Part shown: positions 18,053 through 60,235 of the stretch, in pieces
How the letters are laid out: each line of letters starts with the position of its first letter
Numbering within the stretch: position 1 is the first letter of the stretch
DNA from: Odiellus spinosus
Taxonomy: Eukaryota > Arthropoda > Arachnida > Opiliones > Phalangiidae
Reading direction: 5' to 3'
NCBI GenBank assembly: GCA_963920705.1
Contig: OY987226.1
Span: 33,593,686 to 33,657,685, forward strand
Length of the DNA stretch: 64,000 nucleotides
Notes under the pieces: model-generated
What the model saw: the letters and a program-made list of their open reading frames with translations, nothing else
What the model was told of the DNA's origin: nothing
Database searches by the model: none
Position numbers and translations under genes: made by a program

Positions 18053-21991
<3,939 letters not shown>

Positions 21992-22802
21992 AACATTAAT
22001 CAATCGACCATCTCCGAAGCAGTTTTTGTTTAAAAAAGCCTATTTTTAATCATATTAATTTCATAAGAAATCAAAATAATAAAAACAATTTAAAGAGGAT
22101 GTAAAAGGGTGTATTTTGTTAGTTTAAGAAATTGTCCAAAAATTTAAAGAAATGTGACCGTTTAATACCAGTTTGAGGTGGCAGCACGCGCTAAGATGTT
22201 TTACATATATTATTTAGTCCAAAAAGCAAAGGTATAACGGGCCGTATAGGCTTAGTCTTCCTGCTAACTTGGGGTGGATTCAAGAATCTAAATAAAGGCG
22301 CGTTTACACGGGTATCCAAGATAGAACCGACATTATTTAGACAAGAGATAAAGGCGCGTTCACAGAGAGATGATTATATTACATGGACATTGGAAATCCG
22401 CTTTATGTACCGGGATAAACTGTTACCTTCTAGCGAAGTTGGAAACAGTGTATTTTGACTTATTTATGAAATCTCCTAATTTCTAAAATAAATTTTTGCG
22501 TGTAAAACCCTCTAAGCTTCAATTTTGCAAAGCTTTTAAGCGTAATAACGTCATTTAAGCAAAGGAGGATATGTGTATTTGTGACACGCGTAAAATCGAG
22601 TTCGCCAGCACTAGATTATGTGTAGCCTACTAAATTTGAAGTCGGAAATCACTTTACTCGCAAACAGTAGCGTAAGAATTTTGTTTTAGAATTCTCGCTC
22701 GTTTCTCAGCGCGTGTGTGCATGCGCAGATCGAACCAGGTTATTCATGCCACAATTTACAGTTGACGAATTTTCAACTTTATTCGTGTTTTATTTGGTAA
22801 AC
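21992..22802. other. 3' flank of SDR copy 1, no gene seen
   Basis: The first ~50 bp after the stop match the 3' flanks of copies 2 and 3 (ATTAATCAATCGACCATCTC and on), then similarity is lost. A block around 22130-22290 recurs at 26430-26590 (AATACCAGTTTGAGGTGGCA, TGGGGTGGATTCAAGAATC). No coding exon seen. Confidence 0.45.
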
Positions 22803-23141
22803 CAGAAGCCGATGAAACCCTCCTTTGAAGTCTACTACTCTAATGTTCCATATAGCGCTCCTCTCTGCATGGGTAAAATTCCCAATTTTACGAGATCGGA
22901 GGGGTCCTACTTCATACCCCTCTGTCTAGGGAAAATTGGAAATTCTCTCTCTCCACAAACGACGACTTTTTTTTTGACGAACTCCAAGGCTGCTAGAGAT
23001 ATTCGCTCGACGAACTCCCGCTCCGAAAATATCTACCGTTAGGAGGCGTATGAATCGCGCTTTTTGAAACTAACCCATACAGAGAGGGGTAGACAAGACC
23101 CGGGAGTAATAGACTTCAAAGGAGGGTTTCATCGGCTTCTG
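22803..23141. mobile_element. MITE family B, copy 2
   Basis: Full-length, ends CAGAAGCCGATGAAACCCTC and GGTTTCATCGGCTTCTG. Flanks GGTAAAC and GTACTAG no longer match, so this insertion is older or rearranged. The long frame inside is produced by the element. Confidence 0.92.
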
Positions 23142-32877: not shown

Positions 32878-32985
32878 ATCTAAAAATATCTACCGTTAGG
32901 GATTTTTGAGACTTACCGCTTCGGACATGGTTATAAACTTGACCCGAGAGTATTAGACTTCAAAGGAGGGTTTCATCGGCTTCTG
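32878..32985. mobile_element. MITE family B, solo right end
   Basis: AAATATCTACCGTTAGG through AGACTTCAAAGGAGGG to CATCGGCTTCTG matches the right third of family B. The left part is missing. Confidence 0.85.
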
Positions 32986-34347
32986 CTAAAAGTAGGCAAT
33001 ATGCATTCTATCAGTTGTGATTTAAATATTATTAATATTACAGGTTGCGCTACAGGATTCGGTCACGATTTGGCTAAACGATTGGATAAATTGGGTTTCT
33101 ACGTTTTCGCCACTTGTCGAACTCTCAATTGCGAAGGGGCGAAAAAGTTGCGTTCCGAATGCAGCAGTAACGTTCGAGTTCTGCAATTGGACGTTACCAA
33201 TGACGACGACGTTAAACGAGCTCTAAAAGACGTTACGTATAATCTGATCGACAAAGGTTTCGTATATCGTATCAATCTTATCTAGAAAAAAATCAAGTTT
33301 CCATGGGAATTTATTAGGATCGTTGGGGGACAGCGTTCAACTTGGAATTGTGGGAGTTTCTCTCAAACCTCCTTTGATAGGATTTTATTGAATATGTTTC
33401 CAGAATGGTGTCTATGGGCAAATAAGAATTCCAAGCGTAACTTTCTATCCTTTCTTAATCTTATACGAATTGTGGTCTGATATATCTGGAAATCTCCGGC
33501 TCAGAAATATTTTTGGGGTATTTTATTTAATCCTTAAGATCTTAAGTCTGACACTTCCCATTGTTTTAACGCTCAATTCTTAACGAGACCAGCGTAGTTG
33601 GCTAGAAATGCGCTAGAGATAAGAATGGAAAGACCATGACGTTACGCGCTAATTGACCCAAAAGGAGATAGGGCGTCCCTTTTGATTGACTTTTCAATAT
33701 TTACAGAGCTATGGGCTATCGTAAACAACGCCGGTGTATCTTGCGCATCCGAGGTGGAATGGGTTCCTTTATCTTTGTACAAAAAGATTTTAGACATAAA
33801 CTTTCTCGGCACCGTTCGAGTGACGCGTGCCTTCTTGCCGCTTCTTCGAGAGAGTAAAGGAAGGATCGTCAACGTCACCAGCGCCTTGGGTCGACTGGGA
33901 GTGTTTGGAGGTTCGGGATATTGCTCGTCGAAAAGTGCTTGTATTACGTTTACGGAATCTTTACGGCAGGAAATGAGACGTTGGGGCGTGAAGGTCTGCG
34001 CTATTGAGCCATGGTTTTACGCGTAAATTATTTAACCCATTGTATAAAATATTTGGCATAGACAAAGCGAAGGAAATAAAAGTTACTTCTAGTCGACGCG
34101 TGAATATGGGCTTCGACGAGCTTAAACTCAAATTAGACGAGCAGCTGCGGCTGCCAGATCTGTTGGGAATCCTCAGACCATTAAGAGAGAAAAACAAACG
34201 CTAAATTGTAGATTTTCAGGTCATAAACCTTCCCTAACCAGTTCCATCACTGGATGGCGCTTTCTTCGAATACGCGCGAAGCCCATACTCTCGTTCGCTC
34301 GAAGTAACTTCGCCGTTCCACGCTTTTTCAAATCCAAATGGCTTAGG

Positions 34348-34515
34348 TCCATTTGATCGACAAGGAATCCATTTGATCGACAAGGAATCCATTTGATCGA
34401 CAAGGAATCCATTTGATCGACAAGGAATCCATTTGATCGACAAGGAATCCATTTGATCGACAAGGAATCCATTTGATCGACAAGGAATCCATTTGATCGA
34501 CTCCCGTTCGATTGA
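34348..34515. repeat. 20-bp tandem array (TTTGATCGACAAGGAATCCA), about 8 copies
   Basis: Seven complete units and a partial one, nearly identical, within the phrase-repeat fold-back of SDR copy 2 intron 3. The right end of the fold-back is at about 34677-34703 (GGGAGTCGATCAAATGG, ACCCAAATGG). SDR copy 1 has a single equivalent unit. Confidence 0.95.
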
Positions 34516-35125
34516 CTCCCATAAGAAGTTTATATCTAGAAACACGACCAAAAAGATGCGGTATGGCGAATCACCGATCTAGAACTTGACATCTCTGCGA
34601 ACATTCTCGGGATTTAAAAATCCATTGGGATACTTTTAAAGCAAAGTCGATCAACTGAAGTCTTAAGTCGATCTTTTGGGAGTCGATCAAATGGACCCAA
34701 ATGGTAACTAATATATTCTACCATTCAGATATTAAAAACATTTTGTTGACAATTTTTAGAAGCACTATGACGGATGAAAAAAATTATGTAGCGGTGGCTA
34801 TTTCGCAGCGGTTAATGAGAATTGGGCGAATTTGTCAAACGAGGTTAAAGAGGCTTACGGATTGTCCTATTTCGATCAATTAATCGATTATAATAAAAGA
34901 ACACTAAAAGAAAACGTTCGAAGCCAATCTTACGAGGTTTTAGATTGCGTGGAAGACGCTATTACCTCCGGAGATCCGAGCGAAATCTACTCACCAGGGG
35001 ATTTTCTAACAAGGATAAAATTAGCTATGTGTAGAAGCTTTCCGGAGCCATTAAAAGATCTAGCTATGGAGCGTGCAAGCGGGTATCACGAGTTAGTTCC
35101 AAATATGGCAGCGAAGCGAAGGTAA

Positions 35126-35514
35126 AACATTAATCAATCGACCATCTCCGAAGCAGTTTTTGTTTAGAAAAGCCTATTTTTAACCATATTAAGATAATGA
35201 AAGCTTGTATTTTCTTAAAAACAATACTATGATAAGGTTGCCTAATTCTGAACACTTTCATTTAAAAATGTACAACTTAACTTTGATTGGATCTATTTAA
35301 AGGTGGAAGAGCTCATTTTGTAGATAAAGAATTAATCTACAAAATGAGCTTTTAAAATTTTAAAATAGTCCGTATTGGGCCACCGTTTTTGGGTTAAAGG
35401 GGAACAAACCGTTGTAACGTACCAAATCAAAAATTTAGACGACAGGGAGCATTTCAATTTAAATAATTTAATATTCGGCTGAAGCGAAGAAATCCCGATT
35501 CATTCATACATATT
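35126..35514. other. 3' flank of SDR copy 2 with a hairpin
   Basis: No gene. A perfect hairpin with 16-bp arms AGCTCATTTTGTAGAT and ATCTACAAAATGAGCT (35310-35325, 35335-35350) and a 9-base loop is present. It is probably an element remnant rather than a terminator. Confidence 0.5.
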
Positions 35515-36259: not shown

Positions 36260-38665
36260 ATGACACTGTGGTGGTTTCATTTCGGAGCCGTATTAACGTT
36301 TCTGATATTAGGGATTAGATTTATACCATTTCTAAAATATTTAATTCGTCTGGTAGGATTTTATTTAATTTTGTCACAAACCGCGGCTCTTTTAGCATCT
36401 TATTTTAGAACAAAATATGCCAGACGAGGCGTCGTTGCGACCACGAGCAAGGCGGTTCTTATTACCGGTAAGATTTCAAATATACAAAAACTTGTTTCGC
36501 TTCGCGCTTCGAAAAATTGCGTTTATAAGAAGGATTTTCAAAAAAGGTGTACGCTTAATTGTTCCATTTGACTTTTTCTGGGATACGGTCAAGGCTTATT
36601 TTTGTATTACTTGAAAAAAAAAAAAAAAAAAAAAAAAAATTAAAATCAATTTTGCCAAAAGAGGCCTTTTCAAATCGTCTAATTAACTGATTAAAAATTA
36701 ATTGTAATTTTCGTGTTTCGGGTCAAATCGGCAATACCTTTAAGCTCATTTTAAGGTAGTCCTCGACCGAATCTGATCAGTCTTCCAATTGTACCATTGA
36801 GTATTGCGAGCCATAATTTATGGAAAAACAACTTCTTCACCATAACTACGTCTAAATTAAGTTTTGAATCCAAAAATTTGAAACCGCACAAATAGACTAA
36901 AATAGAAGCTAAGATGATCTTTGACTATAGATAACTTTGATAATTTATTGCTATGTGGCGATAGTGAGGTGGTGAGTAGGCTAAATGTAGGCAATATGTA
37001 TTCTATCAGTTGAAGTTTAAATTTTATTAATATTGCAGGTTGCGCTACAGGATTCGGTCACGATTTGGCTAAACGATTGGATAAATTGGGTTTCTTCGTT
37101 TTCGCCACTTGTCGAACTCTCAATTGCGAAGGGGCGAAAAAGTTGCGTTCCGAATGCAGCAGTAACGTTCGAGTTCTGCAATTGGACGTTACCAATGACG
37201 ACGACGTTAAACGAGCTCTAAAAGACGTTATGGATAATCTGGTCGACAAAGGTTTCGTATATCGTATCAATCTTATCTAGAAAGGATTCAAGTTACCAAG
37301 GGAATTTATTAGGATCGTTGGGGGACAGCGTTCAACTTGGAATTGCGGGAGTGGCTCGCAAACCTTACTTGAAACATCATTTGGCAAAAGTCCTTCATTT
37401 ATAACGTTCCGTTTATGGTACGAGTTCATTGAACATGTTTCCAGAATGGTGTCTATGGGCAAATAAGAATTCCAAGCGTAACTTACTATCCTACGAATTG
37501 TGGTCTGAAATATCTAGAAATCTCCGGCTCAGAAATATTTTGGATATTTTATTTAATTCTCAAGGTTTAAACGCTCAATTTTTTACGAAGCTAGCCTAGA
37601 TGGCTAGAACTGCGCTAGCGGAGTAGAAAGACCGTAACGTTACGCGCCGTTAATTGAACTCGTAATATTTCCAGAGCTATGGGCCATCGTAAACAATGCC
37701 GGTATATCTGGTACATCCGAGGTGGAATGGAATCCTTTATCTTTGTACAAAAAGCTTTTAGACATAAACTTTCTCGGAACCATTCGCGTGACGCATGCCT
37801 TTTTGCCGCTTCTTCGTGAGAGTAAAGGAAGGATCGTCAACGTCATCAGCGCCTTGGGTCGAATGGGAGTGGTTGGAGGCTCGGCTTATTGTTCGTCAAA
37901 AGGAGCTTGCACTATGTTTACGGAAAGTTTACGACGGGAAATGAGAAGTTGGGGCGTAAAGGTCTGCGCTATTGAGCCATGGTTTTACGCGTAAATTATA
38001 TAATTGATAGTATAAAATATTTCGCGAAGACAAAGCGAAGAAAGGAAAATTACTTCTGGCCGTCGCTTACCTATGGGCTTCGTGCTTAGTTTCAAGTTAA
38101 ATAACCATTGGTGGCGGCTAGATCTGTCCGTTTTTTAAACGAGAAAAACAAAGGAACGAGAAGCACCTTTTTTTTGGCAATCATTGGACGACTCTTTCTT
38201 CGATTACGCGCGAAGCCCATACTCGCGTTCGCTCACAATTCCTCGCTTTTTCCGCAACAAATTTATTCTACCATTCTATTTTCAGATATTTAAATCATTT
38301 TAACATTTTTTAGAAGTCCTATGACGAAGGAAGAAAATTTTTTCGCAGCGGTTAATGAGAATTGGGCGAATTTGTCAAACGAGGTGAAAGAGGCTTACGG
38401 AACGTCCTATTTCGATCAATTCATCGAATTTAATAAAAGAACTTTGAAAGAAAATGTTCGAAGCCAATCTTACGAGGTTTTAGATTGCGTGGAAGACGCT
38501 ATTACCTCCGGAGATCCGAGCGAAATCTACTCACCGCGGGACTTTCAAACAAGGATTAAATTAGCTATGTGTAGTAGCTTTCCAGAGCCATTGAAAGATC
38601 TATTTATCGAGCGTACAAGCGGGTATCACGAGTTGGTTCCAAATATGGTAGCGAAGCTAAGGTAA
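36260..38665 (+). CDS. Short-chain dehydrogenase, SDR9C type, copy 3
   Basis: Exons 36260-36467, 37039-37251, 37675-37990 and 38314-38665 give 362 aa with the same phases as copy 1. TGCATGFG, LDVT, NNAG, the Ser of VISALGRMG and YCSSK (here SAYCSSKGA) are present, so it should be active. Differences from copy 1 cluster around the active site: GISGTSEVEWNPLSL for GVSCACVVEWIPISL, NVISALGRMGVVGG for NVTSALGRMGVFGG, SKGACTMF for SKSACITF. These may change substrate preference. It is the most compact copy, with the shortest introns (570, 423 and 323 bp) and no recognised element in them, and has lost the fold-back found in intron 3 of copies 1 and 2. The KpnI satellite begins about 270 bp after the stop. 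Confidence 0.92.
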
Positions 38666-38937
38666 AGCATTAATCAATTGACCAATCTCCGAAGCGGGGC
38701 TAGAAAAGCCTTTTTTTAATCGTTGTAATTTCATGAGAAAAAAAAAAATAAAAAAAAAATTAAGGAGGAAGTAATAAGATTTGTATTTTGTAAAAACAAA
38801 AGCAGTTCTTGAATCTTGTCTCTTAAAAATATTTGAATTTCAATTCGCTATGCAATTAAAAAGTGAAAGATATGGAGTCAAAAACACACGAGATGGCGTA
38901 AATTAACTCTAAAATAAAATAAACAAGAAATGAATTT

Positions 38938-39773
38938 ATTTCAAGGGGTACCCCTTGTAAAAAAAATCCAAATATAAAATGAAATTTTTACAAGGGGTAC
39001 CTCTTGTAAAATTTTTGATTATTTATTTTACAGGGGGTGTATTTATTTTTTTTTTAAAGGGATACCCCTTGTAAAAATTAAATTAGTTATTTCGATTTTC
39101 TTTTACAAGGGGTACCCCTTGTAAAAATTTAATTACAATTTTTGATTATTTATTTTACAAGGGGTACCCCTTGTAAAATTTTGGATAATTTATTTTACCT
39201 TGTAAAAAAAATCGAAATAACTAATTTAATTTTTACAAGGGGTACCAACTTGTAAAAGAAAATCGAAATAACTAATTTAATTTTTACAAGGGGTACCCCT
39301 TTTAAAAAAAATAAATACACACCCTGTAAAATAAATAATCCAAAATTTTACAAGGGGTACCGCTTGTAAAAAAAAAAAAAAATACACCCCCTGTAAAATA
39401 AATTATCATAAATTTTTCTAGGTGTACCACTTGTAAATACACACCCCCTGTAAAATAAATAATCAAAAATTTTACAAGGGGTACCCCTTGTAAAAAAAAA
39501 AAAAAAAAATACACCCCCAGTAACATAAATAATAAAAATTTTTACAAAAAATCGAAATAACTAATTTAATTTTGTAAAAGATAATCGAAATAAATAATTT
39601 AATTTTGAAAAGATAATCGGAATAACTAATTTATTTTTACAAGGGGTACCACCTTGTAAAAGAAAATCGAAATAACTAATTTAATTTTTACAGGGTGTGT
39701 ATTTATTCTTTTTACAAGGGGTACCCTTTGTAAAAATTAAATTACAATTTTTGATTATTTATTTTACAGGGGG

Positions 39774-39817
<44 letters not shown>

Positions 39818-42669
39818 AGGGGTACCCTTTGTAAAAATTAAATTAGTTATTTCGGATTTCTTTTACAAGGTGGTACCCCTTGTAAAAATTAAATTAATTA
39901 TTTCGATTTTCTTTTACAAGGTGGTACCAATTGTAAAAATTAAATTAGTTATTTCGATTTTTTTAACAAGGGGTACCCATTGTAAAATATTTGATTATTT
40001 ATATTATAGGGGCTGTATTATTTTTTTACAAGGGGAACCCCTTGTAAAATTTTGGATTATTTAGTTTACAGGGGGTGTATTTATTTTTTACAAGGGGTAC
40101 CCCTTGTAAAATTTCTGATTATTTTTTTTTTACAAGGGGTACCCCTTGTAAAAATTAAGTTACAATTTTGGACTATTTATTTTACAGGGGGTGTATTTTT
40201 TTTACAAGGAGTACCCCTTGTAAAAATTAAATTAGTAATTTCGATTTTCTTTTACAAGGTGGTACCCCTTGTAAAGTTTTTGATTATTTATTTTACAGGT
40301 GGTGTATTATTTATTTACAATAGGTATCCCTTGTAAAATTTGGTTTTATTTATTTTACAGGGGGTGTATTTATTTTTTTTTTTTTTACAAGGGGTACCCC
40401 TAGTAAAAATTTTGATTATTTATTAATCAGGGGGTGTATTTATTTCTTTTTACAAGAGGTACCCCTTGTAAAATTTTTGATTATTTATTAATCAAGGGGT
40501 GTATTTATTTTTTTTACAAGGGGTACCCCTTGTAAAATTTTAGATTATTTATTTTATAGGGGATGTATTTATTTTATTTACAAGGGGTACCCCTTGTAAA
40601 ATTTTTGATTATTTATTAATCAGGGGGTGTATTTATTTTTTTTTAGAAGGGGTAACCTTTGTAAAAATTAAATTAGTTATTTATTTAGATTTTTTTTACA
40701 AGGAATACCCCTTGTTAAAATTAAATTACAATTTTGGACAATTTATTTTACAGCGGGTGTATTAATTTTTTTACAAGGGGCACCCCTTGTAAAATTTTTG
40801 ATTATTTATTTTACAGGTGGTGTATTTTTTTTTTTTTTTTACAATTGGTAAACCTTGTAAAATTTTCTTTTGTTTATTTTACAGGGGGTGTATTTATTTT
40901 TTTACAAGGGATACCCCTTGTAAAAATTAAATTAGTTATTTCGATTTTCTTTTACAAGGTGGTACACCTTGTAAAATTTTTGATTATTTATTTTACAGGG
41001 GGTGTATTTATTTTTTTTACAAGGGGTACCCCTTGTAAAAATTAAATTACAATTTTGTATTATTTCTTTTACAGGGGGTGTATTTATTTTTTTACAGGGG
41101 GTACCCCTTGTAAAAATTAAATTAATTATTTCAATTTTCTTTTACAAGGTGGTACCCCTTGTAAAAATTAAATAAGTTATTTCGATTTTCTTTTACAAGG
41201 TGGTACCCCTTGTAAAATTATCTATTTTACAGGGGGTGTATTATTTTTTTACAAGGGATATCCCTTGTAAAATTTCTGATTATTTTTTTACACCCCTTGT
41301 AAAATTTTGTTTTATTTATTTTACAGGGGGTGAATTTATTTTTTTTACAAGGGGTACCCCTTGTAAAAATTAAATTAGTTATTTAGATTTTTTTTTACAA
41401 GGGGTACCCTTGTAAAAATTAAATTACAATTTTGGACTACTTATTTCACAGGGGGTGTATTTTTTTTTTACAAGGAATACCCTTGTAAAAATTAAATTAG
41501 TTATTTCAATTTTCTTTTACAAGGTGGTACCCCTTGTAAAATTTTTTATTATTTATTTTACAGGGGGTGTATTTATTTATTTTTACAAGGAGTACCCCTT
41601 GTAAAAATTAAATTAGTTATTTCGATTTTCTTTTACAAGGTGGTAAACCTTGTAAAAATTTTAATTATTTAATTTACAGGGGGTGTATTTTTTTTCTTTA
41701 CAAGGAGTACCCCATGTAAAAATTCAATTACAATTTTGGACTATTTATTTTACAGGGGCTGTATTTATTTTTTTACAACGGGCACCCCTTGTAAAATTTG
41801 GGATTATTTCTTTTACAGGGGGTGTATTTATTTTTTTTTACAGGGGGTACCCCTTGTAAAATTTTTGATTATTTATTTTACAGGGGGTGTATTATTTTTT
41901 TACAAGGGGTACCCCTTGTAAAACTTTGGATTATTTATTTTACAGGGGTTGTACTATGTTTTTACAAGGGGTACCCCTTGTAAATTTCTGATTATTTTTT
42001 TTACAAGAAGTACCCATTGTAAAAATTAAATTACAATTTTGGACTATTTATTTTACAGGGGGTGTATTATTTTTTTTTACAAGGGGTACCCCTTGTAAAA
42101 TTTTGGATTATTTATTTTACAGGGGGTGTATTTATTTTTTTTTTTTTTAACAAGGGGTACCCCTTGTAAAATTTTTGTTTATTTATTTTACAGGGGGTGT
42201 ATTTATTTATTTTTTTTACAACGGGTACCCCTTGTAAAAATTAAATTAGTTATTTCGATTTGCTTTTACAAGGTGGTACCTCTTGTAAAAATTAAATTAG
42301 TTATTTCGATTTTTTTTACAAGGGGCACCCCTTGTAAAATTTTGGATTATTTATTTTACAGGGGATGTATTTATTTTTTTTTACAAGGGGCACCCCTTGT
42401 AAAATTTTGGATTATTTATTTTACAGGGGGTGTATTTATTTTTTTTTTTTTTTTAACCAGGGGTACCCCTTGTAAAAATTAAATATCAATTTTGGACTAT
42501 TTATTTTACAGGGGGTGTATTTATTTTTTTTTACAACGGGTACCCCTTGTAAAAATTAAATTAGTTATTTCGATTTTTTTACAAGGGGTACCCCTTGTAA
42601 AATTACTTATTATTTTTTTTTTGACAGGGGTACCCCTTGAAAATTTTTGATTATTTATTTTACAGGGGG

Positions 42670-42705
<36 letters not shown>

Positions 42706-44165
42706 TGGGTACCCCTTGTAAAATTTGGATTATTTATTTTACAGGGGGTGTATTATTTTTTTACAAGGGGTACCCCTTGTAAAATTTTGGATTATTTATT
42801 TTACAGGGGGTGTATTATTTTTCTACAAGGGGTACCCCTTGAAAACCTTTTGATTATTTATTTTACAAGAGGTGTATTTTTTTTTTACAAGGGGTACCCC
42901 TTGTAAAATTTGGATTATTTATTTTACAGGGGGTGTATTATTTTTTTACAAGGGGTACCCTTTGTAAAATTTTTGATTATTTATTTTACAGGGGGTGTAT
43001 TATTTTTTTACAAGGGGTACCCCGTGTAAAATTTGGGATTATTTATTTAACAGGGGGTGTATTTATTTTTTTACAAGGGGTACCCATTGAAAAATTTGGG
43101 ATTATTTATTTTACAGGGGGCGTATTTATTTTTTTTTACAAGGGGTACCCCTTGTAAAATTTTGGATTATTTATTTTACAGGGGGTGTATTATTTTTTTT
43201 CAAGGGGTACCCCTTGTAAAACTTTGGATTATTTATTTTACAGGGGGTGTACTATGTTTTTACAAGGGGTACCCCTTGTAAATTTCTGATTATTTTTTTT
43301 TACAAGAAGTACCCATTGTAAAAATTAAATTACAATTTTGGACTATTTATATTACAGGGGGTGTATTATTTTTTTTTTACAAGGGGTACCCCTTGTAAAA
43401 TTTTTGTTTATTTATTTTACAGGGGGTGTATTTATTTTTTTTTTACAACGGGTACCCCTTGTAAAAATTAAATTAGTTATTTCGATTTGCTTTTACAAGG
43501 TGGTACCTCTTGTAAAAATTAAATTAGTTATTTCGATTTTTTTTACAAGGGGCACCCCTTGTAAAATTTTGGATTATTTATTTTACAGGGGATGTATTTA
43601 TTTTTTTTTACAAGGGGTACCCCTTGTAAAATTTTGGATTATTTATTTTACAGGGGGTGTATTTATTTTTTTTTACAACGGGTACCCCTTGTAAAAATTA
43701 AATTAGTTATTTCGATTTTTTTACAAGGGGCACCCCTTGTAAAATGTTTGATTATTTATTATCTGATTACTTTTTTTGCCAGGGGTACCCCTTGAAAACT
43801 TTTGGATTATTTATTTTACAGGGGGTCTATTTATTTTTTTACAAGGGGCACCAATTGGAAAATTTTTGATTATTTATTTTACAGGGGGTGTTTTTTTTTT
43901 TTTTAACATGGGGTACCCCTTGTAAAATTTCTGATTATTTTTTTTTGCCAGGGGTACCCCTTGAAAACTTTTGGATTATTTATTTTACAGGGGGTGTATT
44001 ATTTTTTTGCAAGGGGCACCCCTTGTAAAATTTTGGATTATTTATTTTACAGAGGGTGTATTTATTTTTTTTTTACAAGCGGCACCCCTTGTAAAATTAC
44101 TTATTATTTTTTTTTTTTGACAGGGGTACCCCTTGAAAATTTTTGATTATTTATTTTACAGGGGG

Positions 44166-44198
<33 letters not shown>

Positions 44199-46861
44199 GT
44201 AAAATTTGGATTATTTATTTTACAGGGGGTGTATTATTTTTTTACAAGGGGTACCCCTTGAAAACCTTTTGATTATTTATTTTACAGGAGGTGTATTTTT
44301 TTTTACAAGGGGTACCCCTTGTAAAATTTGGATTATTTATTTTACAGGGGGTGTATTATTTTTTTACAAGGGGTACCCTTTGTAAAATTTTAGATTATTT
44401 ATTTTACAGGGGGTGTATTATTTTTTTACAAGGGGTACCCCGTGTAAAATTTCTGATTATTTTTTTTTTTGCCAGGGGTACCCCTTGAAAAATTTTTGAT
44501 TATTTATTTTAAATGGGGGTGTATTATTTTTTTACAAGGGGTACCCCTTGTAAAATTTTTGATTATTTATTTTACAGGGGTGTATTATTTTTTTACAAGG
44601 GGTACCCCTTGTAAAATTTCTGATTATTTTTTTTTTGCCAGGGGTACCCCTTGAAAATTTTTGGATTATTTATTTACAGGGGGTGTATTTATTTTTTTTT
44701 TTTTACAACGGGTACCCCTTGTAAAAATTAAATTAGTTATTTCGATTTTTTTTACAAGGGGCACGGCCCCTTGTAAAATGTTTGATTATTTATTTTACAG
44801 GAGGTGTAATTATTTTTTTTTTACAAGGGGTACCCCTTGTAAAATTTCTGATTACTTTTTTTGCCAGGGGTACCCCTTGAAAACTTTTGGATTATTTATT
44901 TTACAGGGGGTGTATTTATTTTTTTACAAGGGGTACCCATTGAAAAATTTGGGATTATTTATTTTACAGGGGGCGTATTTATTTTTTTTTTACAAGGGGT
45001 ACCCCTTGTAAAATTTTTGATTATTTATTTTACAGGGGGTGTATTTTTTTTTTTTTTTTTCTACAATGGGTACCCCTTGTAAAATTTGGATTATTTATTT
45101 TACAGGGGGTGTATTATTTTTTTACAAGGGGTACCCCGTGTAAAATTTCTGATTATTTTTTTTTTTGCCAGGGGTACCCCTTGAAAACTTTTTGATTATT
45201 TATTTTACAGGGGGTGTATTTTTTTTACAAGGGGTACCCCTTGTAAAATTTGGGATTATTTATTTTACAGGGGGTGTATTTATTTTTTTACAAGGGGTAT
45301 CCCTTGTAAAATTTGGGATTATTTATTTTACAGGGGGTGTATTTATTTTTTTACAAGGGGTACCCATTGAAAAATTTGGGATTATTTATTTTACAGGGGG
45401 CGTATTTATTTTTTTTTACAAGGGGTACCCCTTGTAAAATTTAGGATTATTTATTTTACAGGTTGTGTATTTATTTTTTTTTTTTTTAAGGGGTACCCCT
45501 TGTAAAATTTTTGATTATTTATTTTACAGGGGGTGTATTTTTTTTTTTTTTTTTCTACAATGGGTACCCCTTGTAAAATTTGGATTATTTATTTTACAGG
45601 GGGTGTATTATTTTTTTACAAGGGGTACCCCGTGTAAAATTTCTGATTATTTTTTTTTTGCCAGGGGTACCCCTTGAAAACTTTTTGATTATTTATTTTA
45701 CAGGGGGTGTATTTTTTTTTACAAGGGGTACCCCTTGTAAAATTTGGGATTATTTATTTTACAGGGGGTGTATTTATTTTTTTTACAAGGGGTACCCCTT
45801 GTAAAAATTAAATTAGTTATTTCGATTTTTTTTTACAAGGGGTACCCCTTGTAAAAATTAAATTACAATTTTGGATTATTTATTTTACAGGGGGTGTATT
45901 TTTTTTTTTTTTCCAAGGGGTACCCCTTGAAAAATTTTGGATTATTTATTTTACAGGGGGTTTATTTATTTTTTTTACAAGAGGTACCCCTTGTAAAATT
46001 TTGGATTATTTATTTTACAGGGGGTGTATTATTTTATACAAGGGGTACCCCTTGTAAATTTCTGATTATTTTTTTTACAAGAGGTACCCCTTTTAAAAAT
46101 TAAATTACAATTTTGGATTATTTATTTTACAGGGGGTGTATTTATTTATTTATTTTTTTTTGCAAGGGGTACCCCTTGTAAAATTTGGGGTTATTTATTT
46201 TACAGGGGGTGTATTTATTTTTTTTACAAGGGGTACCCCTTGTAAAAATTAAATTAGTTATTTCGATTTTCTTTTACAAGGGGTAGCCCTTGTAAAAATT
46301 AAATTAGTTATTTCGATTTTTTTTTACAAGGGGTACCCTTTGTAAAAATTAAATTAAAATTTTGGACTATTTATTTTCAGGGGGTGTATTTATTTTTTTT
46401 ACAAGGGGCACCTCTTGTAAAATTTGGATTATTTATTTTACAGGGGTGTATTATTTTTTTACAAGAGGTACCCCTTGTAAAATTTCTGATTATTTTTTTT
46501 TGCCAGGGGTACCCCTTGAAAGTTTTTGGATTATTTATTTACAGGGGGTGTATTTATTTGTTTTACAAGGGGTACCCCTTGTAAAATTTGGGATTATTTA
46601 TTTTACAGGGGGTGTATTTATTTTTTTTACAAGGGGTACCCCTTGTAAAAATTAAATTAGTTATTTCGATTTTCTTTTACAAGGGGTACCCCTTGTAAAA
46701 ATTAAATTAGTTATTTCGATTTTTTTTTTTTTTTTTTACAAGGGATACCCTTTGTAAAAATTAAATTAAAATTTTGGACTATTTATTTTCAGGGGGGTGT
46801 ATTTATTTTTTTTACAAGGGGCACCCCTTGTAAAATTTTGGATTATTTATATTACAGAGGG

Positions 46862-46896
<35 letters not shown>

Positions 46897-47665
46897 GGGG
46901 TACCCCTTGTAAAATTTTTGATTAGTTATTTTACAGGGGGTGTATTTATTTTTTTACAAGGGGTACCCCTTGTAAAAATTAAATTAGTTTTTTCGATTTT
47001 CTTTTACAAGGTGGTACCCTTTTTAAAAATTAAATTACAATTTTGGATTATTTATTTTACAAGGGTGTATTTATTTTTTTTGCAAGGGGTACGCCTTGCA
47101 AAATTTTTCATTATTTATTTTACAGGGGGTGTATTATTTATTTTACAGGGGGTGTATTATTTTTTTTACAGGGGGTACCCCTTATAAAATTTTGGATTAT
47201 TTATTTTACAGGGGGTGTATTTATTTTTTTTACAAGGGGTACCCCTTGTAAAATTTGGATTATTTATTTTGCAGGGGGTACCCTTTGTAAAAATTAAATT
47301 AGTTATTTCGGTTTTCTTTTACAAGGTGGTACCCCTTGTAAAAATTAAATTAGTTATTTCGGTTTTCTTTTACAAGGTGGTACCCCTTGTAAAAATTAAA
47401 TTAGTTATTTCGATTTTTTTTTACAAGGGGTACCCCTTGTAAAAAGTAAATTAGTTTTTTCGATTTTCTTTTACAAGGTGGTACCCCTTGTAAAAATTAC
47501 AATTTGGACTATTTATTTTACAGGGGGTGTATTTATTTTTTTTACAAGGGGCACCCCTTGTAAAATTTTTGATTATTTATTTTACAGGGGTGTATTTATT
47601 TTTTTTTACAAGGGGTTCCCCTTGTAAAATTTTTGATTATTTATTTTACAAGGGGTGTATTTATT
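38938..47665. repeat. KpnI-palindrome satellite array, about 8.7 kb
   Basis: A continuous array of units of roughly 45-70 bp, each built on the palindrome ACAAGGGGTACCCCTTGT (KpnI site GGTACC at the centre) flanked by AAAA/TTTT. Long units continue TTTGGATTATTTATTTTACA then GGGGGTGTATTTATTTTTTT. Short units continue AAATTAAATTAGTTATTTCG then ATTTTCTTTTACAAGGTGG. A third type joins the two with AAATTACAATTTTGGAC. By length this is well over 100 units. Units vary in poly-T length and point changes in the palindrome arms. Open frames repeating GVPLVKF/RGTPCKI are by-products of the repeat. A segment at about 39190-39690 runs in the opposite orientation. Confidence 0.97.
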
Positions 47666-48688: not shown

Positions 48689-51600
48689 TCAACACCAAAT
48701 ATCGGAGGTACAATCCCCTCCTGGATATCGCATTTCATGAGCCAGAACTGGGCCATCAGGTTCGCGCCCGAAATCCACCAAAAAGTTTTCGTTGAGTTTC
48801 AGTCCACCAGTTTCGGTATTGACATCAACCTGCAACATCATGGCGCCACCCCTGTATAATACAACGCGAATTAGGCAAATAATCACAAAGAACAATGCAT
48901 TTATTCCATCCGTGAGAGAGAGAATGAATAAATTGAGGCAAATTCTTACGCAAAAATTCTATAATTTGACCGGGAAATAACTTAAGTATTCTCGAACAAT
49001 ATCTCTACAATTTTAAATTAATTTTTAAGGTGAAACTTGGGCGATCGCGTCACGCAGTCACGGATGAAACCAAGAGAAATACATTCTCGTTGCATTTATA
49101 ATTCTGAGGGTATGAATTCCTACAAGGCCGTTTGTGGGTAGAATTGCTTATCCCAGGGCGAGAAAAGCGATGTTGTAACGTAGAGTCGTTTGCCATCCAA
49201 ACTCAACTGCATCATTTGAGGTCCTCCGCGAATTGCTCTCCCCTTAGCCGAAAGCTGCTTTCGTTGATGCTATAATTTCGTACAATGGTTTATTGAAATG
49301 CTGGGTGTAGGATGCCCTCTAAAAAGCGTAAATACAAAATTTAACCCAACCGTTATTTGGCAAAAATGATTTGAAAACTGCTTTTATTTCCAGAAAAGCC
49401 AATCTTGATTTCATTCATTTTTACGATAAAAAGGGGAAAATGTGGCAATATTTCAGATTTTTTCCGCGCGATAGGGAAACTTGGGTGCCTATTTGAAATA
49501 GACACGACACAGAATTTCACGGAGCAAGCTTTCAGTTTGAAGGTAAAAAACGTGTTTTAAATATACTATATCAATATAATTCTATATTGATTTTTCCGCT
49601 CCATCATTTGGTAAAAATATTTTTTAAATAGCTGTTAATCGCCCTTCAAAGGCCTAGAATTTCTTCCAGGGTGGCAGACGGAAGAAATCCTAGGTCTTTA
49701 AGTAGATATTAATAAGCTAAATTTGCCAATTAGTTACCCCATCCTTTGGTACCACTGCTGAGCCTTCTACCATACTACCACCGAGAAAAAGCTAGTGAAA
49801 AAGAAACATTTCATTACGAATATTTTAATTTTAAAGCTTAAAAAATTGAGGATATTTTGGGTTTCAACTACGTACTTGTCCTTTGAGTACTGGATTATTA
49901 GGATCAGACACGTCATATTGTCGAATATCGCCTTGAGCCCAGTTAGGGAAATACAAGTACTTGTCATCCATAGACAGAATAATCTCGGTGATTAATCCTG
50001 TATTTTAAAATTTGATTTATATTGTTATTTTTTCCTGGGCTGCTGAATGTCTACCACAGTAATCATCTTAGGCTTCGCGAAACAATAACTTTTGTAATGA
50101 CCTTAATCAGAAGCCGATGAAACCCTCCTTTGAAGTCTATTATTCCCGGGTCTTGTCTACCCCTCTCTGTATGGGTTAGTTTCAAAAAGGGCGATTCATA
50201 CGCCTCCTAACGGTAGATATTTTCGGAGCGGGAGTTCGTTGAGCGAATATATCTAGCAGCCTTGGAGTGTGTCAAAAAAACGTCGTCGTTTGTGGAGAGA
50301 GAGAATTTCCAATTTTCCGTAGACAGGGGGTATGAAGTAGGACCCCTCCGATCTCGTAAAATTGTGAATTTTTCCCATACAGAGAGGAGCGCTATATGGA
50401 ACATTAGAGTAGTAGACTTCAAAGGAGGGTTTCATCGGCTTCTGCCTTAATTTAAAATTAATAAATCATTTGTGCACTATCAGACTACGGTAAAAAATTA
50501 CTTTGGCAACTGCTACTGCACAAACTACGGTAACTAGAGATAAATGGCTAATGACTTTTGGCTCATTGGATTGAGAGCTTCGACACATTTGTTAATACCA
50601 ATAAAATCTGTAGAACGAAAAAAATCACCTGGCATCTGCGGCAAGATCCAGTAGTCACAATCAATAGCTTCAACCGAAATTATCTTTTTGACGTCCCATT
50701 CTCCCTGGAAAGACACGAATGAAATTAAATTAATTTCGCGTCTAATTCTGTAGAGGAGAACGTAATAACTTACATCAATTAGTTGGAACTTAAATATCGT
50801 AGATGAAAGGGCGCATCCAACGAATCCGTAAGGCTTATCGGGATTATGCGCGAACCGAACTTCTAAAGGACAAAAACCGTCTGACCCCAAATCGACAGAT
50901 TTCAGCAAGGTTCGTTCCTTCCAGTTCCAGAAATGAAGACGATGTCCGTACTCCGCTGAATTGAGATTCATCAAAAGTATAATAAGCGCTAGTTATTTTT
51001 TATAATGAAAGATAATTTCAAGCCTATGGTCGTACCATCCGCGAGTAAAATAGAAGGACCTCTGACCCTTTGCTAGTGGTCTTAAACATTGATTTCTAAA
51101 AGTGCGTACAATTTATCTAAAGAATCATAGCTGTCTGAATGCTGGCGCCGAGTTTAAGGTTCTTATTTTCTTGTTTGTAAGAGTAACCTACAGTATGCCT
51201 ACAGTATGCCTTTTTGATTTACCGGTGTTATTATATATGTCGTATTAGATTAAGAATTTACTTTTTAATTTCTTCGATATATGTATTTAACACTAATAAC
51301 GCAAATAAATAGTGGCGGCGACTTACACGCTTTGGTCGGGTCGAAGCCTTTCTTGAACTCTTTGGGCTCTCCCCACTCGGTGCTGACCATAATGTTGAAA
51401 CGAGGCTGGTACCAAAAGTCGTATCCCATTTCCGCTTTCCCTTCCCGCTCCCAGATGCCGATGATGTCGAACGTCTTTCCGTCTAACAAGAGGAACGAAC
51501 CTTTCCCGTTGCCATCCTTGTCCCCCATCGCGCTGATCATGACCTCTCCCGACGCTAAACAATGCACAGTGTGAGGGGCGCTCAGGTTGAAGCCATCGCG

Positions 51601-54961: not shown

Positions 54962-57900
54962 CTAAATTCGAAAATCGTTTTCTTTGAACTTTGAAAGATC
55001 GAGAGTCTTTGGTTTAAAGATTAGTTCGGCGAGAAATTGGAGAATGGCGAGACACAGCAGACAAAGCCACATTACAAAGACGGCTTTGAGATCGGAGAAA
55101 CCTAGAGTTCTTTCGACGTTCGAAGTATCTATTCCGCTGGTGCAACGCGTGCTGTCGTCAGTAATCTCGTCTTTCCACTTGTCTTTCAGTCCCGTTTCAA
55201 CGACTTGATATAATCTATTCGAGGAAAAAAGTTACGAATGTATGGTTTGTTCCCATTTCGCCCAAATATTTCGCCCAAAATTATCTATTCCCATTTCGCC
55301 CAATCCTACTTCACCCAAACGTATTATCATTTGGCCCAAAATTATCGATTCCCAATTCGCCCAAACCAAAATTTCCTTGCCCCAATTCGCCCAATCCCAC
55401 TTCGCCCAATCGTTTTATCAGTTAGTAAAGAATTATCTATTCCCATTTCGCTCAACCTAAAATTCCTTTTCCCGTTTCGCCTAAAATTGTTAGGTTGGGT
55501 TAGGTTAGGTTAGGTTAGGTTAGGTACAAATAATTAAACAGGACGAAGGAACCGATCAAGAGGATTTTGTTCGCATATGCCTTGGGTGTGGATTGGGCGA
55601 AATAAGAATAAATTGGGCTGATTGGGAATTGGGCCAGTTGGGATTGGGCCAGTTAGGATTGGGCCAATTGAGTTTGGGCCAATTGAGTTTGGGCGAATCG
55701 GGGTAGAACCGAAGGCTCCCTAACTTGAAAAATATGTCCTAACTTGGTAAAGGTTTCTCTAAAAATTCGTAACTTCAGTTTGAGTAGCTCGAATTAAGCT
55801 GCCTAAGGCTCGTTTTGTAGACGTCATATCGGGCTATTCGGAAAAAATAACTTGGACACTCTAGGAAAATATCGCGAGAAGATACGAGGCTATTTAGCTC
55901 AACCCCCAAATTTGATTCATCAATTATATGGGAATTTTAGGGAAAGTCTCCTTTTTGGGACCTCAGAATTGGAACAACGTGACATACGCTCATTTCACGC
56001 ATCCAACAGCCTCGCTAACGAAACTAAAACTGATACTAGGCGTAGTTATTATAATTGTTTGTTACTTTTTGTCGATGGCGTCGCGCGTTTCCTTCGAGAA
56101 CCTTTTGGTGTATGGGAAATAGGAGTGAATGGCGTAGATGACCTCCTTTGCCAAGTGAATTTTCGTGTCTGGGGCGATGGAACACATGAGGCCCAAGAAA
56201 TAATCGAATATGGTGGTCTCGCACATGAAGGCTGCTTTGCCGTTCACGGTGTCCTCGTAGTTCTCCCAAGTATAATAGTCGCGTACGCTAATGAAGCCGC
56301 CATTCTTGTCAGCCTTATTTTCGATGTTGTTATACGCTGGTAGATCTGTCGTCTGAAAGAAACAGACCCGTCTTTAGATATCATCAGAAGCCGATGAAAC
56401 CCTCCTTTGAAGTCTGTTACTCCCGGGTCTTGTTTACCCCACTCTGTATGGGTTAGTTTCAAAAAGCGCGATTCGTACGCCTCCTAACGGTAGACATTTT
56501 CGGAGCGGGAGTTCGTCCAGCGAATATCTCTAGCAGGCTTGGAATTCGTCAAAAAACGTCGTCGTTTGTGGAGAGAGAGAATTTCCAATTTTCCGTAGAC
56601 AGGGGGGTATGAAGTAGGACCCCTCCGATCTCGTAAAATTGGGAATTTTACCCATAGAGAGAGGAGCGCTATATTGATTACTAGACTTCAAAGGAGGGTT
56701 TCATCGGCTTCTGATATCATAAACATCTTTACGTAAAGAGCATAAAAAAAACCGTAAACAGTTTAAAAGTAGGCCTAGTGATGTACCTTTAGTTAGTCCA
56801 TTAACCTTTATGAATTATAGGACAACTTTTCATTCAGCGATGTAGAGGATAACGGCTAAGAACCTCAAAAATTTCAAGGTTGCAGTTTAGCAGTTTGTAA
56901 TGGTCTAAATAAACAACATTCCCAAAAATTAAAGAACCAAATTTTAAATATTCTCTGTGGCCATAATCCTTAATTCCACTTCTTTTTCTGTGAGTTCCAA
57001 TATGAAGTATGACTCCGCCTTTGCTTTGAGTCAATACTTCAACATTTAATTTTTTAAATTACCAATCAATATTAGTCACCCCCCTCCAACAAATTGGGCG
57101 GTTTAAAAAGTTGGAAAGTGGAGATTGGCACCCAGTCTGACATACACACTCCTTTGAGTACGATTTCAGTGTTTTACTAAAGCATCTGACCACTGCACTA
57201 TAGCTAATTCCTCTGAAGATGACTTTGACCCTCCAATTCGATCATTTAACGCGCCTTATAAAAATTCGATCAAATGACCATTCGATCAAACGTCGCACGA
57301 TCACGCCGTTCGATCAAATTAATTTGGATCCAACGTCACCACCAAATCAACTTATTAATGAAACAAGTTCGTGTAATTGGATAAAAAGCACTATCTTACC
57401 CTAACGAAAACCTCGAAAGATGAACCGCTCCAAATCATGACCCTAAGGTCATCAGGCTCTTTGGCCAGGTCATCGGCATTTTCTATTTGTTTGGGTTCCG
57501 TCACGATGGTCAACTGACTTTTAAAATGTCCTGTGAAGGCGTTCATTAACGTCAGAACCGCGATGCACCACACGAACAGAAGCCATTTATTGATTCCCCG
57601 TTTCACCTCTTTAGGGGTGCCTAAATATATATAAACATTATTATTTGAAATATTGCATTTTTTTTATCACTTTTATTTGCCAAAATATTAATCAGCTAAT
57701 GGTGACATTTTTGGACCCTGTCCTGCATACAATGTGTCAAACTCTGATTTAAATGGGAAATTCAAGAGCAAATAAAATTTCATTCATCCATTAACTGATT
57801 CATGAAGCGCGTAAACTAGCGCAATAACTTTTATTTTTTCTTTTGCGACTTGTAAGTAGGCCTAGTTAATTCTTTCGGTAATTGTCTTGTATTTTATATA

Positions 57901-60235
57901 TTTTTTTAAAGATTATTTTTTCAATTTGATATCATTTGTATAATCTTCGTTTGTGCGGCTCTAATTTAAAGGATATTTGTGAATAGATGCGTAAAAAGGT
58001 TGCAAAGGTATTCAACAACAGCGCACCGTGTTGTTTAAGGCGAAAAACTACATATCGGAATGAACATGGTTTTTTTTTATTAATTTTCATAATTACCTTC
58101 TGAGAAAAAAGCAGCCAGATAATTCCAGAAGTAATCCGAGATTAATTTCGCTTTTTTAATTTTAACTCCTAAAACCCCACCAAGAGCAATATCCACGAAT
58201 AGACTAAGTACAGTCAGCAATACTATAGAAAGAAACACTCCAATCCAAACCTAAAACAAGTTGGAAAACCCATAAAATTAACTTTCCTTGTGTCAGCAAC
58301 ACTATTTGTTAGGTAGAGGACTAGAATTAACGCAATTTAAATTAATAATAGGTTTCCAAAGAGAAGATGCGAAGGACCCCTAGGAAAATATCTTTCGGGA
58401 ATTTGGATATTTTATAGAACTTGCCTTGCTTATTAAAACTTGTAAATTACCGTGAACCGATGAATTACGCGGCAAATTACCGTAAACCGATGAATTACGC
58501 GGGAAATTACCGTAAATCGATGAATTACTCGGTAAATTACCGTAAACCGATGAATTACTCGGTAAATTACCGTAAACCGATGAATTACTCGGTAAATTAC
58601 CGTAAACCGATGAATTACTCGGTAAATTACCGTAAACCGATGCATTACTCGGTAAATTACCGTAAACCGATGAATTACTCGGTAAATTACCGTAAACCGA
58701 TGAATTACTCGGTAAATTACCGTAAACCGATGAATTACTCGGTAAATTACCGTAAACCGATGAATTACTCGGTAAATTACCGTAAACCGATGAATTACGC
58801 GGCAATTCCGTAAACCGATGAATTACGCGTTTAATTAGCGTAAACTGATGAATTACCCGCCAATTTCCAAATTGGTAGCGTAGTGCAAAACAATGAATAC
58901 ATTAAAAATATTTTTGATTGTTTTTATATCTTTGGGACCCGAGGAACGTCACATAGACGTCAATATTGTACGGGGGAAATAATTAACTACGACTGCCGTT
59001 GATTTTATTGACTTTATAAGGCTGGGCGTAAATTATATCGGATGATGAAAACCAGGGCAAAAATAATTTCAATCTTATCATTCTATGATGAGATTAAAAA
59101 AAATTGGATTACCTCAAATTTGAAGGTGGCGAAGAGACCCCAATAGTTTTGGTCAATTTGCGTTTTGAGAGCTGTGGCGATCCTAAAATAACTGGTATGG
59201 ATTGGGCACGAATAATAGACTATTTCTAATCGCTCAAGATCTGTCGCGATTGGAACTCCGAATATGTCCGCTTCCTAATTAACAAATTTTATAATTACTT
59301 TTAATTCAAATGGAATTAGTACTCGCTTTTCTTCCGAATTACTTACCCCTCTTTGAATGGATCCCATAATTCCCGTCCAATTACCGTCAGCTTGTTTAGT
59401 CCCGAAAAGGCCGTCAGGCGCGTTTACTAACTCGTAGCTATATAGAAAAACAAATCAGTATTTTAAAGTAGATATTTAATAAAAGGTTAAGGGTTTGCTT
59501 GTGCAGCTCATTGTTAGCTTCAAACTGAGAGCAACTACAACCAAATCGCGGCCAATATATAAGACCGTTTTTAATTTTCAAAGTTCAATAAAATATTTTT
59601 TATAACGAGAGATGGCGCTAGAGCGGCGTCCGTTTTCCTAAATCTAAATGTTAGGTCTCATTTTAAAGGTATCAGAGAGACCGTGATTTTCCCTTAAGTA
59701 ATTTAATAACGTAACCTAAAATATAAGGCCCTCAGAGAGAATGAATTGAATCCTCTTTGGGACCTTGTTTTTGTTCCATCCCCAGGGTTGCCAGTTTTTT
59801 CAGATTCAAATTCCCTGACTTTTCCAGATTTTTCCCTGACCGATTCAGCTAATACTATCCAATTTTTAACCTTTTATTTTTTATATTACAGTACCTAAAA
59901 ATAAATATTTTCAATAACATGGTATTCGTTTAGGTTATGTTTTAAATCTTTGGTTCAAATTTTTTATGCAGATAATGATTGTAATTTCTTGGCTTCTTAA
60001 CAGATCTTTAAAATAAACTGGGTTTTTCCGCGAGGTGGCGTAGAGCTTCAGATTTACCTGTATAGTGCTGAATACGAAGGGCTCTATGGGGAACTCAAAC
60101 TTACGGACCGGCTTATGAAGATACTTAATTAAGAAGAGTTTACCTGACATTGAAAGATTTGGATAAATGTCGAATAATGTTCGACGATAACCCGTGTAAA
60201 TTGCCATCATCGTCCACCGTCAACATTGGCTCGAA
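54962..60235 (-). CDS. Ionotropic (IR-like) glutamate receptor, ligand-binding and channel core
   Basis: Seven exons join in phase: 60235-60144, 59437-59347, 59274-59113, 58250-58097, 57620-57400, 56352-56066 and 55214-54962, 419 aa plus a missing N-terminus. IR-like receptors are chemosensory or modulatory cation channels in the plasma membrane. Order seen: S1 lobe (DGNLHGLSSNIIRHLSKSF, then YELVNAPDGLFG, NWTGIMGSIQRG, EADIFGVPIATDLERLEIVY), TM1 (VWIGVFLSIVLLTVLSLFV), pore (SDYFWNYLAAFFSE), TM2-3 (WLLFVWCIAVLTLMNAFTGH then FKSQL), S2 lobe with VETGLKDKW, and last TM (FVMWLCLLCLAILQFLAEL). A likely upstream exon is 60684-60547 (open, phase 0, GTAATT donor), but the exon between it and 60235 was not resolved. 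Introns hold a phrase fold-back, a family B MITE and a 30-bp minisatellite. The S1 glutamate-binding Arg is not evident, so the ligand is unknown. Confidence 0.88.
55245..55700. repeat. Phrase-repeat fold-back (CCCAATTCGCCCAA) with TTAGG tract
   Basis: The left part (55249-55485) repeats CCCATTTCGCCCAA-like phrases over ten times. The right part (55590-55695) has the complement as TTGGGATTGGGCCAG and GAGTTTGGGCCAATT. Between them 55489-55525 reads TTAGG repeats. It lies about 30 bp upstream of the last exon of the receptor gene, within an intron. Confidence 0.85.
55489..55525 (+). repeat. Interstitial (TTAGG)n telomere-type tract
   Basis: Five tandem TTAGG units preceded by TTAGGTTGGG. TTAGG is the telomere repeat of most arthropods. 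Here it is the core of a fold-back, not a chromosome end. Confidence 0.9.
56385..56713. mobile_element. MITE family B, copy 5, exact 7-bp duplication
   Basis: Full-length with CAGAAGCCGATGAAACCCTC ends. ATATCAT flanks at 56378-56384 and 56714-56720. It sits about 25 bp upstream (in gene sense) of the receptor exon that starts at 56352. Confidence 0.95.
57226..57322. repeat. Short phrase repeat (TTCGATCAAA)
   Basis: At least four copies of ATTCGATCA(A/T)-like phrases, related in style to the CCATTTGATCGAC fold-backs in the SDR introns. Intron of the receptor gene. Confidence 0.6.
58432..58858. repeat. 30-bp minisatellite, about 14 copies
   Basis: Head-to-tail copies of TAAATTACCGTAAACCGATG followed by AATTACTCGG. 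The central ~9 copies are almost identical and the edges diverge (TTACGCGGCAA). The unit length is a multiple of three and lacks stops in frames of both strands, so long false open frames appear. It lies in an intron of the receptor gene. Confidence 0.96.
59783..60010. mobile_element. CAGGGTTGCCA MITE, copy 2, right end missing
   Basis: CAGGGTTGCCAGTTTTTTCA, TTCAAATTCCCTGACTTTTC, CAGCTAATACTATCCAATTT and GCAGATAATGATTGTAATTT match 6944-7190. The right third is absent. It lies in the first receptor intron. Confidence 0.8.

What the first reader, a model, noticed from the sequence alone, without database searches (positions are those of the whole stretch)
38938..47665. Large satellite whose every unit is a KpnI-site palindrome
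The array has more than a hundred units carrying ACAAGGGGTACCCCTTGT, extended by TTTT/AAAA to a 26-bp dyad. Each unit can form a hairpin, so single strands would fold into serial cruciforms. Two linker types alternate irregularly, GGATTATTTATTTTACAGGG and AATTAAATTAGTTATTTCG, suggesting a higher-order repeat. The palindrome arms vary more than the GGTACC core. It could be a centromere-like or heterochromatin satellite, or tandemly amplified ends of an inverted-repeat element.
Basis: partly seen in the sequence, partly recalled or inferred. Interest (0 to 1): 0.75.

Follow-up and report, generated by a model that had tools for sequence, protein, structure and literature searches.

The report
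Dispersed palindrome-bearing satellite DNA family
A real 8.7-kb stretch of non-coding tandem repeats, one of many arrays of the same family scattered through this animal's genome; the repeats carry a short mirror-image sequence, but nothing found here shows that the mirror symmetry is kept for a purpose.

Summary
The array is real: 137-141 palindromic units at 38941-47665, 39 exact. The genome (443 Mb; (CCTAA)n at two contig starts) holds 5136 exact palindromes, reversed control 0, in arrays from one or two units to a block of about 130 kb judged from spaced samples. So it is a dispersed satellite family.

Corrections: four forward linker types, not two, plus six inverted units at the left edge; no regular higher-order repeat, only irregular internal duplications; 40 of 119 ungapped palindromes are perfect dyads.

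The linker holds a half-palindrome that also forms arrays of its own, so the palindrome looks like two half-modules head to head (inference). The dyad shows no sign of selection: compensatory changes do not exceed shuffles, and the palindrome is no more conserved than the linker. Against that, its GGTACC centre beats the arms in 17 of 20 loci. No common carrier element was found beside sampled arrays. The centromere reading is not supported here: the array lies between two genes and another satellite has more copies. New family, known kind.

The parts
38941..47665 (+). the satellite array: 137 (ungapped) or 141 (gapped) palindromic units with A/B/C/D linkers
39190..39700 (-). block of units in inverted orientation at the left edge; one further inverted unit starts at 38941
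42210..42390 (+). 181-bp stretch repeated exactly at 43437, 1227 bp downstream
44994..45165 (+). 172-bp stretch repeated exactly at 45488, 494 bp downstream
37041..37250 (+). exon of a short-chain dehydrogenase gene, left neighbour (context, not part of the array)
   Evidence: Pfam adh_short, E 2.9e-07
37677..37991 (+). further exon of the same dehydrogenase gene (context)
   Evidence: Pfam adh_short, E 2.8e-27
48689..48868 (-). last exon of a selenium-binding-protein gene, right neighbour (context); stop codon included
   Evidence: Pfam SBP56, E 1.7e-23; frame

Best explanation
It is one array of a non-coding satellite (minisatellite) DNA family spread over the genome of an arthropod-like animal. 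Shown: tandem units of about 40-78 bp, most with a 26-bp palindrome or its decayed form; local block duplication; arrays at many sites; palindromic arrays and half-module arrays side by side; no covariation between palindrome arms. Inferred: arrays grow and shrink by unequal exchange and replication slippage; new sites are seeded by pieces copied from other arrays; the palindrome arose where two half-modules (TTTTACA[A/G]GGGGT) met head to head and is now carried along by copying of whole units rather than kept by selection. I think this array has no dedicated function and is an unstable spacer between two genes.
For: 5136 exact palindromes, reversed control 0; 7062 exact half-modules; 99 places of one linker variant on 16 contigs, 21 of them in this array; exact internal block duplications; compensatory changes 2 against 1.3 expected in the window, 46 against 55.6 in 1567 palindromes and 17 against 32.7 in 353 distinct ones; palindrome and linker equally conserved, 0.933 and 0.936 in type A, 0.946 and 0.971 in type B; half-module arrays without palindromes.
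Against: The GGTACC centre is better conserved than the arms in 17 of 20 loci, which plain drift does not predict. Clusters of one linker variant lie in the outer fifths of large contigs in 14 of 21 cases, P 0.012, which is unexplained. In all 1567 palindromes the true pairing gives more compensated cells (44) than pairings slid by 1 or 2 (15-30), although 26 of them are one change and the excess nearly vanishes among distinct sequences (15 against 7-14). Units within an array (0.888) are hardly more alike than units of different arrays (0.876; 16 loci), so local homogenisation is weak. The direction half-module to palindrome is not shown.
Confidence: 0.8

Rival explanations
1. The arrays are the inner tandem repeats of a mobile element (Helentron/HINE, pearl-type MITE or foldback element) that carries them to new sites.
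For: Such carriers are known in oyster (PMC7492417, abstract and one section). 22 of 61 sampled edges share sequence with another edge. Two loci, L033 and L034, share about 390 bp at 85% starting 8 and 24 bp from the edge.
Against: No flank is common to the arrays: 39 of 61 edges share nothing with another at this cut-off, and by my reading most shared ones are other minisatellites. In the window 135 of 141 units have one orientation, unlike foldback arms. Target-site duplications were not tested.
Confidence: 0.1
2. The dyad is a working sequence, for example a binding site or a hairpin used at centromeres or in outer chromosome regions, and is kept by selection.
For: Core above arms in 17 of 20 loci; outer-fifth enrichment of one variant, 14 of 21; published proposals link dyads to centromeres (PMC9070824 abstract).
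Against: No excess of compensatory change over shuffles; palindrome not better conserved than linker; non-dyad variants such as the GCCA...TTGA form (8 of 119) have been copied within the array; the locus lies between genes.
Confidence: 0.07
3. The array in this window is an assembly artefact.
For: Long tandem arrays are prone to mis-assembly (general knowledge); no reads could be examined.
Against: The same family recurs at many separate sites with different flanks and unit mixes; this array is internally diverged, 47 distinct 18-mers among 119. Its exact length remains unverified.
Confidence: 0.02

Closest known systems
Dispersed euchromatic satellite DNAs of animals, e.g. in Tribolium castaneum, Drosophila, Crassostrea gigas (review PMC10048060, passages read)
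   Same: Short to medium satellite arrays scattered over the genome, some beside genes, several repeat families next to each other
   Different: Palindrome within the unit and a half-module that also makes arrays alone; sequence not found in the held papers
phBglII400 satellite of a clam (PMC5139131, abstract and passages read)
   Same: Satellite unit with a palindrome, arrays with abrupt edges at scattered sites
   Different: There 13 of 16 junctions map to the longer palindrome and the rest to the shorter; here 15 of 35 edges fall in the 26-bp zone against 11.7 expected, not significant
Cg_HINE Helentron elements of oyster (PMC7492417, abstract and section on elements read)
   Same: Satellite-like arrays dispersed over the genome, in some loci beside short-period repeats
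   Different: No conserved left and right flanks found here
Macro-dyad satellites of Tribolium madens (PMC13081366, abstract only)
   Same: Satellite arrays that reverse orientation, e.g. L010 and the C1 half-module sites at 458-474 kb
   Different: Here the dyad is inside the unit; the sampled arrays mostly keep one orientation (20 switches among 2386 neighbouring module pairs) and are far below megabase size

Membership tests
Satellite / minisatellite DNA | head-to-tail tandem units | tested here: met
   137-141 units, 135 of 141 in one orientation
Satellite / minisatellite DNA | many copies in the genome | tested here: met
   5136 exact 18-mers, reversed control 0
Satellite / minisatellite DNA | non-coding | tested here: met
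   no ORF of 150 aa or more overlaps the array; no Rfam or tRNA match in the window; expression not testable
Centromeric satellite | association with CenH3 | not testable with these tools
   needs ChIP or CUT&Tag
Centromeric satellite | one large block per chromosome | tested here: inconclusive
   the largest block seen, about 130 kb on C1, lies amid non-array samples; other sampled arrays are smaller or run off the stretch; no whole-chromosome map was possible because lists are capped at 100 places
Helentron / HINE element | conserved left and right flanks around the array | tested here: not met
   22 of 61 edges share sequence with any other edge; none common to the arrays
Helentron / HINE element | subterminal inverted repeats and a 3' palindrome in the right flank | not tested
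   no common flank to search in
Foldback element | two long inverted arms made of tandem repeats | tested here: not met
   135 of 141 units in one orientation in the window
Selected hairpin | compensatory changes between arms | tested here: not met
   2 against 1.3; 46 against 55.6 and 17 against 32.7

The most novel reading that the evidence does not exclude
The palindrome is the junction element of a modular satellite: half-modules joined head to head make a hairpin-forming unit that promotes birth, inversion and spread of arrays, giving a family concentrated in the outer parts of chromosomes, where the arrays help to organise chromosome arms. The well-conserved GGTACC centre, the 6 of 35 edges within 2 bp of the dyad centre (seen after the fact) and the outer-fifth enrichment would fit; the planned junction and switch tests were not significant.
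Probability: 0.08. Interest if true: 0.55.

Novelty: new member of a known kind. Interest (0 to 1): 0.3.

Why it matters
Dispersed satellites are common, but a family with palindrome-only, half-module-only and mixed arrays side by side in one genome is a good test case for how satellite units are born and spread. It also warns against reading function into a repeated palindrome: symmetry copied with the unit looks conserved without being selected.

Tried and rejected
Arm covariation as a sign of selection: not found against shuffles. Palindrome better conserved than linker: no. Orientation switches enriched at palindromes: no, 10 of 20 against 9.8 expected. Array edges enriched in the palindrome: not significant. 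Common carrier element: not found. Regular higher-order repeat: no. Sequence in print: three stretches of the repeat searched anywhere in the words of the held papers, 0 papers; five phrases for palindromic satellites, 3 papers, unrelated by their titles; broader term searches gave listings only, apart from the papers named. Viral contigs: 26-mer, 0 matches. Long gapped alignments between arrays (stopped by its time limit after printing) mix general array likeness with true block copies and were not used. The serpin-like look of the flanks of L011 and L015 is recalled from the translation and was not tested. The species was not identified; 'arthropod-like' rests on (CCTAA)n at the starts of C10 and C14 and general knowledge. 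The genome counts of the type B linker, of (TTAGG)n and of the CTCAAT repeat never ran, because the genome machine did not answer.

Full report
OBSERVATION. An ungapped scan for ACAAGGGGTACCCCTTGT with up to 5 mismatches finds 137 units between 38941 and 47665 and none elsewhere in the window; 39 are exact and GGTACC occurs 106 times in the array. A gapped scan finds 141 units. Perfect palindromes with arms of 7 or more number 49, against a mean of 2.7 in 50 Markov shuffles of the array. From 40 to 48 kb the strands are unequal: AT skew -0.24 to -0.33, GC skew +0.21 to +0.27.

ANATOMY. The forward linkers fall into four types: A (72 units, median period 64), B (29, 50), C (20, 76; B-left joined to A-right) and D (14, 41.5); six units are inverted, at the left edge; four assignments are weak. 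The type string has no regular higher-order period: the best of 40 lags has z 3.2. Exact blocks recur irregularly: 181 bp at 42210/43437, 172 bp at 44994/45488, 113 bp at 45717/46561. Of 141 palindromes 119 have no indel, with 47 distinct 18-mers, and 40 of the 119 are perfect dyads.

SURROUNDINGS. On the left is a short-chain dehydrogenase gene on + (exons tested: 37041-37250 and 37677-37991), on the right the last exon of a selenium-binding-protein gene on - (48689-48868). The dehydrogenase is the third of three copies in the window; likeness between copies one and three ends at 38791, before the array, and the array matches the rest of the window only in A/T runs. The window is C2:33593686-33657685 of a 34489198-base contig, within 0.84 Mb of its end.

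THE FAMILY. The genome (443 Mb, 286 contigs) holds 5136 exact 18-mers, 0 for the reversed control. The 27-base half-module TTTTACAGGGGGTGTATTTATTATTTA has 2514 + 4548 exact copies, control 0. One type A linker variant has 99 places on 16 contigs, 21 of them in this array. In 26 loci a fuzzy scan finds 1571 palindromes, 372 exact; scaling 5136 by that ratio gives roughly 21,700 palindromes, about 1.3 Mb at 60 bp each. That is an extrapolation from loci chosen through exact matches. Sampled loci show four array styles: alternating palindrome and half-module (as here), half-modules alone, palindromes alone, and mixtures with orientation changes. Sizes run from one or two palindromes (L022, L026) to a block on C1. 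There, 69 of the 100 listed sites of another variant (346 in all) run from 3.771 to 3.881 Mb, all on one strand; 7 of 7 half-kilobase samples from 3.795 to 3.9005 Mb are array, those at 3.768 and 3.915 Mb are not, and one at 3.975 Mb is again. Continuity between samples is assumed. Seven of 30 loci also hold CTCAAT-type minisatellite arrays.

HALF-MODULE AND PALINDROME. The type A linker contains TTTTACAGGGGGT, which matches the palindrome arm TTTTACAAGGGGT in 12 of 13 positions (direct reading). Half-modules also form long arrays without palindromes. The palindrome can therefore be read as two half-modules head to head. This is inference; half-modules as decayed palindromes are not excluded.

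TESTS. (a) Covariation: in the window 138 pair-cells changed on one arm, 11 on both, 2 compensated, against 1.3 expected. In 1567 palindromes from 26 loci 46 were compensated against 55.6 in shuffles; in 353 distinct ones 17 against 32.7. Against pairings slid by 1 or 2 positions, all 1567 give 44 against 15-30; 26 of these cells are one A-T to T-A change, and among distinct sequences the figures are 15 against 7-14. (b) Conservation: palindrome 0.933 and linker 0.936 in type A (P 0.85), 0.946 and 0.971 in type B (P 0.20); but the core GGTACC exceeds the arms in 17 of 20 loci. (c) Folding: the 26-mer -9.0 kcal/mol, two variant forms -2.2 and -7.0; in both two-unit stretches arms pair with a neighbouring unit or the half-module. 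(d) Orientation switches: 20 among 2386 neighbouring pairs; 10 have a palindrome between, 9.8 expected. (e) Edges: 15 of 35 in the 26-bp zone against 11.7 expected, P 0.15; 10 of 35 in the 18-bp zone against 8.2, P 0.30. The 35 are those of 43 edges with at least 4 palindromes inside; one edge counts twice through overlapping loci L013 and L014; A/T-rich flanks make some breakpoints uncertain; 6 of 35 lie within 2 bp of the dyad centre, not tested. (f) Carrier: 22 of 61 edges share sequence with another edge in 19 pairs; I judged most of these to be other minisatellites by reading, not by a test. (g) Likeness of type A units within arrays 0.888, between arrays 0.876 (16 loci, samples of up to 15 units); within the window it falls from 0.878 to 0.855 with distance.

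CHROMOSOMAL PLACE. For the type A variant, clusters lie in the outer fifth at either end of contigs in 23 of 30 cases (merging within 50 kb, P 5e-5) or 14 of 21 (within 1 Mb, P 0.012). Other cut-offs with 1-Mb merging give P 0.052 (5%), 0.043 (10%), 0.009 (15%), 0.039 (25%) and 0.20 (30%). I entered 45 of the 99 places, leaving out near neighbours of entered ones and contigs C10, C113 and C274; the window's own cluster is included, and contig ends need not be chromosome ends. A different 23-bp satellite has 19770 exact copies of a 34-mer; only the first 100 places are listed, on C8, C11 and C16 near their starts. C10 and C14 begin with (CCTAA)n.

COMPARISON. Dispersed satellites near genes are well known (PMC10048060, passages). 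One clam satellite has its junctions in palindromes (PMC5139131, abstract and passages); here that was not significant. Oyster satellite-like arrays sit in Cg_HINE elements with conserved flanks (PMC7492417, abstract and one section); such flanks were not found. Tribolium madens satellites form macro-dyads (PMC13081366, abstract). Non-B structures are discussed for fly centromeres (PMC9070824, abstract). Three stretches of this repeat were not found in the held papers. I file it as a new family of a known kind, dispersed satellite DNA.

VERDICT. Observation confirmed with corrections; satellite reading supported; centromere, serial-cruciform and element-end readings not supported. The conserved core and the outer-chromosome enrichment are facts that my explanation does not account for.

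Noticed in passing
window 22803-23141, 50106-50444, 56383-56713: About 339-bp repeat with inverted ends of about 38 bp, copies 91-96% alike, looks like a MITE; also found in the flanks of L013, L015, L016 and L017.
   Followed up: partly
window 20499-22119, 32985-35192, 36980-38791: Three tandem copies of a short-chain dehydrogenase gene region.
   Followed up: partly
window 4890-5041, 34348-34501, 58442-58856: Other tandem repeats: 25 bp x 6 and 20 bp x 7.7, both 100% matching, and 30 bp x 14 at 95%.
   Followed up: no
G000 contigs C8, C11, C16: A 23-bp satellite (AAGTATAGATTTACAAATTTCCC) with 19770 exact copies of a 34-base stretch; the 100 listed places lie near the starts of these contigs.
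   Followed up: partly
L012, L015, L020, L021, L023, L036, L038: CTCAAT-type minisatellite arrays in the same stretch as the palindromic or half-module arrays.
   Followed up: partly
G000 C1:458064-473704 (part in L010): Long half-module array; listed exact sites are + up to 461235 and - from 461551, so it reverses once among the listed sites.
   Followed up: partly
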